Assembly (NCBI GenBank): GCA_001819555.1
Contig: MHMZ01000012.1
Coordinates: 55,748-89,399, forward strand
Source of the DNA: Candidatus Portnoybacteria bacterium RIFCSPHIGHO2_02_FULL_39_12
GTDB lineage: Bacteria > Patescibacteriota > Minisyncoccia > Portnoybacterales > UBA2143
Reading direction: 5' to 3'
Length of the DNA: 33,652 nucleotides
Of this stretch, positions 30,009 through 33,652 are shown piece by piece. Made by a program: the position numbers and the translations under genes. Numbering within the stretch: position 1 is the first letter of the stretch; each line of letters begins with the position of its first letter. Below the pieces are notes generated by a model, which made no database searches, was not told the origin of the DNA, and saw only the letters and a program-made list of their open reading frames with translations.

Positions 30009-31145
30009 ATGACTAAATCATTCATTTACGCTTTTTCAACTTTGACCGGCACGATTATCGGCGTTGGTTTTTTTAGTCTGCCCTATATCGCTTCTAAGGT
30101 TGGTTTTTGGGTTATGCTTTTTTACTTTATCGTTTTGAGCCTGGTGGTTATCTTAGTTCATCTTTTATACGGCGAAATTGCCTTGAGAACTAAAGGGCTT
30201 CATCGTTTACCGGGTTATGTGGATAAATATTTTGGTTCCGGAGGTAAAATTTTTAGTCTTTCCGCGGCTATTTTAGGAGGGTATGGAGCGCTTTTAGCTT
30301 ATCTCATTGTTGGCGGACAATTTACTTTTTCTCTTTTAAGCCCGATATTCGGCGGCTCTGATTTGGTTTATACTCTAATTTACTTTTTTTTCGGCGTTTT
30401 TTTAGTTTATTTCGGCATCAAAAGCATTGCTCAGATAGAGTTTTTCGCTTTAATTTTATTTTTCGCGGTTCTTTTTCTGATTTTTTGGCGCGGCTCTGCT
30501 TTGATTGAAATAAAGAATTTATTTGTTTTTGATAAAAATTATCTTTTTTTGCCTTACGGGCCAATACTTTTTTCTTTGACCGGCATTGCCTTGATGCCGG
30601 AAATCAAAGAGATGCTTAAAGACAATCCTAAAAGCCTTAAATCGGTTGTCCCTTTGGCCATTTTTGTTTCCGCGCTCGCTTATCTTTTTTTTATTTATTT
30701 GATTTTGGGCATTACCGGCCAAAACACTTCAATTGAAGCTATTGCCGGCTTAAAAACTTTTTTAGGCGACGGCCTGGTGTCTTTAGCTCTTTTTTTCGGG
30801 GTTTTGACCACTTTTACTTCTTTTATTACTCTTGGTTTGACTCTTAAAAAAGTTTTCTGGTATGACTTAAAATTTCATAAGAATCTGTCTTGGTTTTTGG
30901 CTTGTTTTGTGCCCTTGGCTCTCTTTTTTCTTGGATTTAAAAACTTTATAACTATAGTCGGCTTGACCGGCGGCGTAATGCTGGGCATCGATGTTCTTCT
31001 TATTCTTTTTGTTTATCTGAAAGCAAAAACCAAAGGCGAATTAACGCCGGCTTACAGTCTTTCTTTGCCCCGTCCTTTGATTTACTTTTTAATCCTTTTT
31101 TTTATTTTAGGCATTATTTATGAAATCATCTACTTCATTAAGTAA
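30009..31145 (+). CDS. aromatic amino acid permease-like transporter
   Basis: About 11 TM segments; N-terminal STLTGTIIGVGFFSLPYIASKVG resembles the HAAAP/AAAP family. Confidence 0.75.
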   Translation: MTKSFIYAFSTLTGTIIGVGFFSLPYIASKVGFWVMLFYFIVLSLVVILVHLLYGEIALRTKGLHRLPGYVDKYFGSGGKIFSLSAAILGGYGALLAYLIVGGQFTFSLLSPIFGGSDLVYTLIYFFFGVFLVYFGIKSIAQIEFFALILFFAVLFLIFWRGSALIEIKNLFVFDKNYLFLPYGPILFSLTGIALMPEIKEMLKDNPKSLKSVVPLAIFVSALAYLFFIYLILGITGQNTSIEAIAGLKTFLGDGLVSLALFFGVLTTFTSFITLGLTLKKVFWYDLKFHKNLSWFLACFVPLALFFLGFKNFITIVGLTGGVMLGIDVLLILFVYLKAKTKGELTPAYSLSLPRPLIYFLILFFILGIIYEIIYFIK

Positions 31146-31710
31146 ACAAATAAAGGGCAAATATCAGCTGAGAGCGCCCAGGCCAAAAAAAGAAGAGCAG
31201 GAATTCGGCCCCGGGGAAATTGATATTTTAATGTGTCAAAAGTGCGAGGCGGTTTATTATTACAAAAGTTGGCATCATCGGCTGGAGGATTACCAATCGC
31301 TTTCTGAAGATAAACCCCGCACCTTTTCTGGATATGCTTCGCATAAAATTTATAATCCAGAAAAAGCGCGGGGTAAAAGAATAAAATTTATTCTTTGTCC
31401 GGCTTGCCAGATGATTAAAGACAAAAAATACGAAGGCCGGATAATTTTGAAAAATGCGCCGCCAGAGAAAAAAGAAGAAATTTTAGGACTGGTTAAAAAT
31501 ATAGGCGAGCGGGCTTTTCAAAGAGACCCTTTGGACAGAATTATTAGTATAAAAAGCAAAAAAGGAGATATAGAAATTTTAACAACGGAAAATCAATTAG
31601 CAGTGAGTATTGGCAAGCAAATCAAGCGCGCTTTTAAGGGCAGTTTGGAAATCCAATGGTCGCATCAGGAAAGTATAGCGAGGATTATTTGGAATTATGA
31701 AAAAATTTGA
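31120..31710 (+). CDS. zinc-ribbon protein (NMD3/BCAM0308-like?)
   Basis: ILMCQKCEAVYYYKSWHHR ... FILCPACQMIKDKKYEGRI two CxxC knuckles; C-terminal LTTENQLAVSIGKQIKRAFKGSLEIQWSHQ. In-frame palindrome 31315-31373. Confidence 0.5.
   Translation: MKSSTSLSKQIKGKYQLRAPRPKKEEQEFGPGEIDILMCQKCEAVYYYKSWHHRLEDYQSLSEDKPRTFSGYASHKIYNPEKARGKRIKFILCPACQMIKDKKYEGRIILKNAPPEKKEEILGLVKNIGERAFQRDPLDRIISIKSKKGDIEILTTENQLAVSIGKQIKRAFKGSLEIQWSHQESIARIIWNYEKI
31315..31373. repeat. CCCCGCRCCT palindromic element, copy 3 (in frame in zinc-ribbon gene)
   Basis: CCCCGCACCTTTTCTGGA / TCCAGAAAAAGCGCGGGG near-perfect 18-bp arms. Confidence 0.9.
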
Positions 31711-32098
31711 AGTTTTAGAACACACCGCGGATTTAAAAATTAAGGCCTTTGGCAAAGACCCAAAAGAGCTTTTAGAAAACGCTATGCTCGGGATGTATAA
31801 AGGGGCTGGTTATTTTGGCGAGGGAAGGAAAATAAAAAGAGAAATTGAGATTTCTTCCGTGGACACGCCCGCTTTATTAGTTGATTTTCTAAGCGAAGTA
31901 TTATATCTGACTGAAACCGAGCAGGAAGTTTACCAAAAGATTCAATTTCAAGAATGCGGCGAAAAACACATTAAAGCCGCGCTTATTGGTAAAAAACTCA
32001 AAAAAATAGAGACGCAAATCAAGGGCGTCACCTATCACGATTTAGAGATTAAAAAACTTGACAACCGCTGGCAAGCGGTTGTATTATTTGATATATAA
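31697..32098 (+). CDS. archease
   Basis: KFEVLEHTADLKIKAFGKDPKELLENAMLGMY...LLVDFLSEVLYLTETEQEVYQKIQF...IKGVTYHDLEIKKLDNRWQAVVLFDI. Confidence 0.92.
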   Translation: MKKFEVLEHTADLKIKAFGKDPKELLENAMLGMYKGAGYFGEGRKIKREIEISSVDTPALLVDFLSEVLYLTETEQEVYQKIQFQECGEKHIKAALIGKKLKKIETQIKGVTYHDLEIKKLDNRWQAVVLFDI

Positions 32099-32099
32099 G
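32052..32099 (+). repeat. direct repeat copy 1 (archease 3' end) flanking retron module
   Basis: AAAAACTTGACAACCGCTGGCAAGCGGTTGTATTATTTGATATATAAG; offset exactly 1430 bp from copy 2, 28-bp identical core. Confidence 0.95.
32058..32087 (+). promoter_or_regulatory. putative sigma70-type promoter reading into retron ncRNA
   Basis: TTGACA (32058-32063), 18-nt spacer, TATTAT (32082-32087); spacer filled by inverted repeat ACAACCGCT GGCA AGCGGTTGT (32061-32082). Confidence 0.55.
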
Positions 32100-32139
32100 G
32101 GGTTCCGTTTCGTTGAGTTCTTTGAGTTCTTTGCTCATT

Positions 32140-32415
32140 TCTTTAGAAGAAGAGTCAGTTGTAAGAAGAAAAGGAGGGCAGCGAGTGGTTTCTTTTCTTC
32201 ATAAGTTAAGTAAAGAAGATGCCTCCCCTATTTTTAGGGGACTGCTCGTTTGTTAACCTTTTCTCCTGCTGGCTTCCAGCAGGTGGATTGTTTTAGTAGG
32301 GACTCCAGCCGCACCTGGCGTTTCCTGATTTGTCTGGGCCCTTCGACTTACTTTGAGATGCTTTAGAAAAGTTGGTCGAGTAATGGTAGTCTACGAACTG
32401 GCTCTTCTTCGCTTC
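32140..32415 (+). ncRNA. putative retron ncRNA (msr-msd)
   Basis: 15-bp a1/a2 pairing GAAGAAGAGTCAGTT (32146-32160) with AACTGGCTCTTCTTC (32396-32410, one G:U). Internal hairpins: 32165-32172/32193-32200, 32225-32230/32235-32240, CCTGCTGG-CTT-CCAGCAGG 32265-32283, and msd-like stems 32296-32304/32388-32394 and 32343-32354/32368-32379. Immediately upstream of a retron-type RT. Confidence 0.75.
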
Positions 32416-32450: not shown

Positions 32451-33437
32451 ATGAATAACGAAAAACTGAAAAAAGGAATAAATGAAATTTGTAATTTTCT
32501 TGAGTATAATCCCGGAATAATGGATTTAGAAAAGGCCTTTGAGGGGCGCAATTCTTATCAGCGGATATTTATCCGCAAGCGCGGCGGCAAGAAAAAAGGA
32601 AAACGGGTTATCCATGTCCCGCCGCCAAAATTAAAAAATGTTCAAAGCGTGATTCATAGGCGCGTTCTTGAAATGGTTGAATGGCCGGCGTCGGTCCATG
32701 GATTTGTAAAAAACAGGTCTCATCTGACTGCCGCCCTAAAGCATAGTCGTTCAATTCCTCCGCCTGTCGCGCTTTTGCTTATTGATTTCAAAGATGCATT
32801 TTCTAATGTAGGGGTTAAAAAAGTAGAGCGGGCTTTAGATAAAAGATTACAGCCCAATTTACTTTGTCCTTTAAGTCCCGGGGCCATAAAACTGCTGGCA
32901 AAACTTATTACCTATCGCGGCCGGCTGCCCCAGGGCGCTCCGTCTTCGCCTACGATTTTTAACCTTGTTGCTTTAGATTTAGACGAGGTGCTGTCTGTTT
33001 ATGCTGAAGAGCGTGGCTATACTTATACCCGTTATGTTGATAATATTGCGGTTTCCAGCCCAAAGCCGATTCCGAAAAACGAGCGCGCAGAAATAATTGG
33101 GTTATGCCGTCAATTTGGCTTTCAGGTAGTGTCTGAAAAGGCGCGGTATCAAGAAGCAAAATGGGGCGTATTAGAAATGACCAAGGTTCTTTTACAGCCA
33201 TACGGTGGACAAAAGTGGTACGCAAGCTATGGCCTCGGACTTTCTAACAGAAAATTTGTTGATAAAGTCCGGGCTATGGTTCACCGAGCCCAAAAAGACC
33301 CTTCAATTTCTCTTGCGAGCATTTGGGGAAAAATAGATTATGTCCGGTTGGTTGACCCGTATAAATTGTCCAGTCGGCTAAGTAAACCGATGCGTCAATT
33401 GCGTAGTATACAATCAAATTTAGAAAGGAGGAAATAA
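32451..33437 (+). CDS. retron-type reverse transcriptase with YVDN catalytic box
   Basis: VHGFVKNRSHLTAALKH (region X-like), LLLIDFKDAFSNV (motif A), GRLPQGAPSSPTIFNLVALDLD, YTYTRYVDNIAVSS, VLEMTKVLLQPYG (VTG-region equivalent). Confidence 0.85.
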   Translation: MNNEKLKKGINEICNFLEYNPGIMDLEKAFEGRNSYQRIFIRKRGGKKKGKRVIHVPPPKLKNVQSVIHRRVLEMVEWPASVHGFVKNRSHLTAALKHSRSIPPPVALLLIDFKDAFSNVGVKKVERALDKRLQPNLLCPLSPGAIKLLAKLITYRGRLPQGAPSSPTIFNLVALDLDEVLSVYAEERGYTYTRYVDNIAVSSPKPIPKNERAEIIGLCRQFGFQVVSEKARYQEAKWGVLEMTKVLLQPYGGQKWYASYGLGLSNRKFVDKVRAMVHRAQKDPSISLASIWGKIDYVRLVDPYKLSSRLSKPMRQLRSIQSNLERRK

Positions 33438-33444
33438 AAAAGGG

Positions 33445-33477
33445 GCAGCGAAAAGAAAACGCTACCCTTTTCTTTTT
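33445..33477 (+). terminator. terminator after retron RT
   Basis: GGGGCAGCG AAAAGAAAA CGCTACCCTTTTCTTTTT hairpin with T-rich tail. Confidence 0.7.
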
Positions 33478-33481
33478 GGTT

Positions 33482-33529
33482 AAAAAGTTGACAACCGCTG
33501 GCAAGCGGTTGTATTGTTTGATGTATGAA
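33482..33529 (+). repeat. direct repeat copy 2 (archease 3'-end-like) flanking retron module
   Basis: AAAAAGTTGACAACCGCTGGCAAGCGGTTGTATTGTTTGATGTATGAA; encodes KVDNRWQAVVLFDV-stop in the homologous frame. Confidence 0.95.
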
Positions 33530-33586: not shown

Positions 33587-33652
33587 ATGAGAAGTTTAAT
33601 ATTTGTCTTTTTGGCAATTATTAGCGAAGGAGTGTACGCTACGTTTCATCGA
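33587..33652 (+). CDS. partial ORF, putative signal-peptide/membrane protein start
   Basis: MRSLIFVFLAIISEGVYATFHR..., runs off window end. Confidence 0.45.
   Translation, partial: MRSLIFVFLAIISEGVYATFHR

What the first reader, a model, noticed from the sequence alone, without database searches (positions are those of the whole stretch)
32140..32415. Candidate retron ncRNA upstream of the right-end RT
The 250-nt interval before the RT is closed by a 15-bp a1/a2-like inverted repeat. It contains several hairpins, including a perfect CCTGCTGG/CCAGCAGG stem and a long msd-like stem. The typical branch-G context (AGC right after a1) was not obvious, so this may be a divergent ncRNA class.
Basis: partly seen in the sequence, partly recalled or inferred. 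Interest (0 to 1): 0.8.

Follow-up and report, generated by a model that had tools for sequence, protein, structure and literature searches.

The report
Effector-less retron-like RT and RNA
A small-genome bacterium carries a reverse transcriptase gene paired with a large folded RNA laid out like a retron (a bacterial system that turns part of its own RNA into DNA), but with altered active-site signatures and no visible effector gene, and distant relatives in the same phylum look the same.

Summary
A 15/15-paired helix (32146-32160 / 32396-32410) closes a 265-nt noncoding interval just before an intact 328-aa reverse transcriptase (RT). Only 2 of 1500 shuffles reach its score, and the interval folds far better than chance. 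The RT matches retron RT profiles best, so the retron-type reading stands. It is divergent: YVDN for YADD, AALKH for NAxxH, MTK for VTG, no AGC after a1. By strict membership test it is retron-like, not a proven retron.

The main support comes from relatives in the same small-genome (Patescibacteria/CPR-like) phylum. RTs only ~25-35% identical have their own unrelated-sequence a1/a2 helices in the same place. A sister-species pair of such RNAs shows compensatory changes (5-6 versus 0.8 expected) and an RT under purifying selection. In relatives checked, these are RT+RNA units between housekeeping genes with no effector; two carry a second copy of the RNA core. Loss of the second catalytic Asp recurs (13 of 51 RTs, against 0 of 80 from other phyla) and is inherited by clades.

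The window's cassette is flanked by a 45-bp repeat of the archease 3' end that also reads as a promoter. Whether msDNA is made, and why, is untested.

The parts
32052..32096 (+). left copy of a 45-bp direct repeat: last codons of archease, also a promoter-like TTGACA-18-TATTAT (32058-32087) with a dyad ACAACCGCTggcaAGCGGTTGT (32061-32082) in its spacer
   Evidence: 93% identical to 33482-33526; only these two copies in the genome; promoter and dyad scan
32097..32145 (+). leader between the archease stop and a1, with a short tandem repeat TTGAGTTCT TTGAGTTCT
   Evidence: sequence, read directly
32146..32163 (+). a1 arm of the closing helix
   Evidence: 15-bp inverted repeat; pair probability 0.95, three further pairs after a bulge
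32167..32264 (+). first long branched stem-loop (msr-like by position), including hairpin 32224-32230/32235-32241
   Evidence: MFE and pair probabilities 0.58-0.98
32265..32283 (+). perfect 8-bp hairpin CCTGCTGG-ctt-CCAGCAGG
   Evidence: probability 0.99
32285..32335 (+). third, weaker stem-loop
   Evidence: probabilities 0.50-0.76
32338..32387 (+). last stem-loop before a2 (msd-like by position only)
   Evidence: 7 + 5 bp core, probabilities 0.91-0.94
32392..32410 (+). a2 arm of the closing helix
32451..33437 (+). retron-type reverse transcriptase, 328 aa, intact; motif C YVDN, region X AALKH, region Y MTK
   Evidence: Pfam RVT_1 6.8e-17; PADLOC retron RT_III-A 4.3e-39; NCBIfam retron St85 2.5e-37, below its cut-off; PDB retron Ec86 1.6e-16; alignment columns
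33440..33477 (+). interrupted stem-loop followed by T-rich tail, probable terminator of the ncRNA-RT unit
   Evidence: read by eye from the sequence; not flagged by the consensus scan, which limits loops to 8 nt
33482..33526 (+). right copy of the 45-bp repeat, same reading frame (last residue V instead of I, stop TGA), also promoter-like TTGACA-18-TATTGT; followed by GAACTaacacAGTTCTTTT and then an ORF that runs off the contig end

Best explanation
This is a two-part retron-like unit: a structured RNA of about 265 nt (32146-32410) and its cognate RT, probably transcribed together from the promoter-like site inside the left repeat. By analogy with retrons, the RT would recognise the folded RNA, prime from a guanosine near the a1/a2 helix, and copy the a2-proximal part into RNA-linked single-stranded DNA. 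It belongs to a divergent lineage of such units found mostly in one phylum of small-genome (Patescibacteria/CPR-like) bacteria. There the units sit alone between housekeeping genes without an effector, and the second catalytic aspartate is often replaced, mostly by asparagine. Shown here: structure, RT kinship, conserved layout, covariation and purifying selection in relatives, and absence of a recognisable effector in the cassette. Inferred: joint transcription, cDNA synthesis, priming site, use of YVDN as an active catalytic site. The biological role is open; an effector acting in trans or a role other than abortive defence are both possible.
For: RT kinship: all top PADLOC matches are retron RTs and the best PDB matches are Ec86, Kva2 and Ec67 retron RTs. 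Conserved layout: a1/a2-like helices end 23-47 nt before the RT in relatives with unrelated arm sequences: L003 16/16 bp, L117 15/15, L017 17, L002 16, L146 12/12, plus the YADN RTs L129 and L133 at 21-24 nt. Upstream regions of 35 cluster RTs are more structured than those of 35 control genes (Mann-Whitney p = 7e-5; 10 versus 1 with z below -3). Covariation in sister species G888/G890: 6 double changes and 0 broken among 65 pairs, slid controls 0-1; on structures predicted from one sequence alone, 5-6 compensatory changes against 0.8 expected, P <= 0.001. That pair's RT: dN 0.092, dS 0.717. Neighbours are DinB, sugar transferase, Mur ligase, Wzy, sigma factor, GyrB, RbfA, FtsK, with no PADLOC hit among those tested. 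Non-D at motif C in 13 of 51 RTs of this phylum and 0 of 80 others, explained by 4 changes on the tree, so inherited over long branches rather than recent decay.
Against: No AGC after a1; NAxxH, VTG and YADD are all altered in the window RT. The nearest RT found is only 33-35% identical, so covariation could not be tested on this RNA itself. Not every RT in the cluster has a detectable a1/a2 helix. The cluster's support on the tree is modest (SH-aLRT 80). The contig ends 215 bp after the RT, so a downstream effector in this genome cannot be excluded.
Confidence: 0.68

Rival explanations
1. A catalytically dead or decaying retron: the RT lost the second catalytic Asp and the retron signatures, and the RNA fold is a remnant.
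For: YVDN, AALKH and MTK in place of the canonical motifs.
Against: The ORF is full length without stops. The first Asp of motif C, motif A Asp, QG and other columns invariant across 25 retron-type RTs are kept. Non-D at motif C is shared by a 7-row clade that also holds L129 and L133, whose a1/a2 helices are intact, so such RTs persist over deep divergence. The ncRNA helix is intact.
Confidence: 0.13
2. An ordinary tripartite retron whose effector lies beyond the contig end, for example the gene starting near 33587, which has its own copy of the promoter-like repeat and begins with a hydrophobic, signal-like peptide.
For: The next ORF is cut by the contig end and sits behind a near-identical promoter-like repeat. 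Some retron effectors are membrane proteins (general knowledge).
Against: A probable terminator and a second promoter separate it from the RT. The relatives examined have housekeeping neighbours and no effector.
Confidence: 0.12
3. Not retron-like: a cis-regulatory leader or another RT class (group II intron remnant, diversity-generating retroelement, DRT) with an unrelated structured RNA.
For: The canonical retron RNA context is missing, and the 3' flank of the RNA can pair with the RT ribosome-binding region.
Against: No Rfam group II or other match above threshold in the window. No template/variable repeat or second copy in the genome. The RT has PQG (LPQGAPSSP), unlike the DGR motif as I recall it, and retron profiles dominate its hits; Drt2 and group II scores are far lower. 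The same a1/a2 layout recurs in relatives.
Confidence: 0.07

Closest known systems
Retrons with separate RT and ncRNA (Ec86/Eco1 kind; PADLOC RT_III-A, II-A, VI, X and 'outgroup' profiles)
   Same: ncRNA directly upstream of the RT, closed by an a1/a2 helix; RT aligns over motifs 1-7
   Different: 265-nt RNA without AGC after a1; YVDN, AALKH and MTK instead of YADD, NAxxH and VTG; no effector in the cassette
Retron Ec107 (inserted in place of a 34-bp palindromic intergenic sequence; cited in PMC6868368; a variant YCDD active site is also noted there)
   Same: RT-ncRNA cassette associated with a palindromic chromosomal site; variant catalytic motif
   Different: here the palindrome lies within a 45-bp repeat of a gene's 3' end on both sides, and the changed residue is the second Asp
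Single-gene RT-protease and RT-TIR retrons (types XI/XII), also present in this phylum (L008, L009, L012, L013)
   Same: same broad RT family; L012 and L013 also have strong a1/a2 helices
   Different: L008, L009 and L012 have long C-terminal extensions; these RTs keep YADD, have shorter RNAs (about 130-150 nt) where measured, and group with RTs of other phyla
DRT/UG reverse transcriptases with ncRNA (Drt2 and others)
   Same: solitary RT with an adjacent structured RNA
   Different: profile scores far lower than retron (Drt2 1.6e-6 against retron St85 2.5e-37)

Membership tests
retron | RT of the retron clade | tested here: met
   PADLOC, NCBIfam and PDB retron RTs are the best hits; NCBIfam score below the family's curated cut-off
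retron | ncRNA next to the RT closed by an a1/a2 inverted repeat | tested here: met
   same layout in relatives
retron | covariation of the ncRNA stems | tested here: inconclusive
   clear in relatives G888/G890 and partly in L129/L133 (fewer broken pairs); no homologue close enough to test the window's own RNA
retron | branch guanosine in AGC directly after a1 | tested here: not met
   sequence after the 15-bp a1 is GTAAGAAG; the only nearby AGC (about 32180-32182) is inside a predicted stem
retron | YADD catalytic motif (YCDD known in Ec107, PMC6868368) | tested here: not met
   YVDN
retron | NAxxH in region X (Asn varies in Ec48 and Mx65, PMC6868368) | tested here: not met
   AALKH; the Ala and His positions are kept
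retron | VTG at the start of region Y | tested here: not met
   MTK; Thr kept
retron | production of msDNA (2'-5' branched RNA-DNA) | not testable with these tools
   needs expression and gel or sequencing
retron | associated effector (tripartite defence retrons) | tested here: not met
   none in the 1.43-kb cassette; archease and an NMD3-like protein upstream; downstream gene cut by the contig end
diversity-generating retroelement | template/variable repeat pair in the genome | tested here: not met
   no second copy of the upstream region in the genome
group II intron | intron ribozyme domains around the RT | tested here: not met
   no Rfam intron match, even at relaxed threshold

The most novel reading that the evidence does not exclude
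A phylum-level lineage of effector-less retron-like units in small-genome (CPR/Patescibacteria-like) bacteria, in which RTs using a YxDN-type active site copy large RNAs, some loci carrying two RNAs per RT with a shared core and a different distal part, for a purpose other than the known tripartite abortive defence.
Probability: 0.4. Interest if true: 0.78.

Novelty: new variant of a known kind. Interest (0 to 1): 0.55.

Why it matters
Known defence retrons pair an RT and RNA with a toxin-like effector. Reduced-genome bacteria that keep an RT-RNA unit under selection with no effector in sight suggest either an effector in trans or another use of small cDNAs. The repeated Asp-to-Asn change in the catalytic motif makes a simple enzymology question testable: can such an RT polymerise? 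Compact RTs with new RNA scaffolds, and loci with two RNAs per RT, may also interest those who build DNA-producing tools. I found no paper describing retrons in this phylum in the library available.

Tried and rejected
Close homologues: single-protein scans of genome contigs and viral contigs found none; phage and plasmid tblastn gave only generic, at most ~31% identical RTs. A 15-sequence alignment was too divergent for the pattern scan. Searching the orders of G041 and G350 gave no nearer RT. An empty insertion site could not be shown: archease was not found in 8 same-family genomes. Direct repeats flanking the RT were not seen in 13 other cassettes, so the archease repeat is specific to this locus. 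A shared TTG at the end of a1 in L001, L002, L003 and L017 was considered as a priming-site signature; it is too short to claim.

Full report
WHAT IS THERE. The window's right end holds archease (31697-32098), a 352-nt intergenic region, and a 328-aa RT (32451-33437). The intergenic region contains a 15-bp inverted repeat at 32146-32160/32396-32410, reached by 2 of 1500 dinucleotide shuffles of the region. The closing helix has pair probability 0.95. The plus strand folds better than the minus strand (-100.8 against -84.5 kcal/mol).

THE RT. Profile and sequence searches point to retron RTs. Its motifs are atypical: YVDN for YADD, AALKH for NAxxH, MTK for VTG; definitions of these motifs and of AGC are from PMC6868368. 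The columns invariant in an alignment of the window RT with 24 retron-type RTs of other phyla include the first motif-C Asp and the motif-A Asp. Fewer signatures than in a textbook retron are met, so I describe it as retron-like.

RELATIVES. RTs of 25-35% identity were found in other genomes of this phylum. Several have strong a1/a2-like helices ending 21-47 nt before the RT, made of unrelated sequences. In the sister pair G888/G890 the RT is 86% identical with dN 0.092 and dS 0.717, and the RNA shows 6 compensatory and no broken pairs of 65. To avoid circularity I predicted the structure from one sequence only and scored the other: 5-6 compensatory changes against 0.8 expected from random placement, P <= 0.001. 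L129 and L133, both YADN, keep nearly the same a1/a2 helix with outer pairs changed on both sides, and have fewer broken pairs than random, though their compensatory count alone is not significant. Over 35 RTs of the cluster, the 245 nt upstream are more structured than upstream regions of 35 neighbouring genes (p = 7e-5).

SOLITARY UNITS. Neighbouring genes of the relatives are housekeeping genes, with no PADLOC defence hit among those tested. In this phylum, RTs with protease-like or other extensions (L008, L009, L012, L121) and L013 instead group with RTs of other phyla. Thirty-seven of 51 RTs of this phylum, the window's included, form one cluster with a single outsider; the support is modest (80), and the tree is a quick one with long branches.

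MOTIF C. The second Asp is replaced in 13 of 51 RTs of this phylum (11 Asn, 1 Ala, 1 Gly) and in none of 80 others; the 80 came from a scan whose pattern allowed D, N or A at that position, but they are not a random sample. The tree needs 4 changes, and a clade of 7 is uniform for xDN. This argues for a maintained state. Whether such RTs polymerise is unknown; GDN occurs in polymerases of some negative-strand RNA viruses (general knowledge), while the equivalent change is damaging in retroviral RT (general knowledge).

SECOND RNA COPIES. In L158 (G759) a second structured element follows the RT: 56 nt of the core are 95% identical to the upstream RNA, its own closing helix has a different sequence, and the distal part differs. 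In L150 (G041, the nearest relative by RT) a 54-nt, 78% copy of a hairpin block lies about 600 nt upstream of its counterpart in the ncRNA. The window's RNA has no second copy in its genome.

THE FLANKING REPEAT. The ncRNA-RT cassette lies between two copies, 93% identical, of a 45-bp sequence that is the 3' end of archease. The right copy keeps the same frame and a stop at the same place (read). The repeat is also a near-consensus promoter with a 22-nt dyad filling the spacer. Two readings fit: insertion at a gene's 3' end by an element carrying a replacement end, or a duplicated promoter/operator serving the cassette and the next gene. I cannot separate them without an empty site.

LIMITS. 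No close homologue was found, so the window's RNA itself has no covariation test. The contig ends 215 bp past the RT. Function, transcription and cDNA synthesis are inferred.

Noticed in passing
window 32052-32096 and 33482-33526: 45-bp direct repeat (93%) of the archease 3' end on both sides of the cassette, which also reads as a near-consensus sigma-70 promoter with a 22-nt dyad in the spacer; only two copies in the genome.
   Followed up: partly
L158 (G759), oriented +1119 to +1272 from the RT start: A second ncRNA-like element downstream of the RT: 56-nt core 95% identical to the upstream RNA, own closing helix, different distal part.
   Followed up: partly
L150 (G041), about 740-790 nt upstream of the RT: A 54-nt, 78% copy of a hairpin block of the ncRNA, in the locus of the nearest RT relative.
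   Followed up: partly
window 31120-32098: NMD3-like protein and archease, usually thought of as archaeal/eukaryotic or sporadic in bacteria; archease was not found in 8 same-family genomes, one of them of the same genus.
   Followed up: no
window 30009-31145; L151 9926-10501; L152 1528-2670: A Trp/Tyr-permease-like gene within about 5 kb of the RT in three loci; Pfam-confirmed only in the window, by eye in the others; may be coincidence.
   Followed up: no
window 32113-32130: Short tandem repeat TTGAGTTCT TTGAGTTCT in the leader before a1.
   Followed up: no
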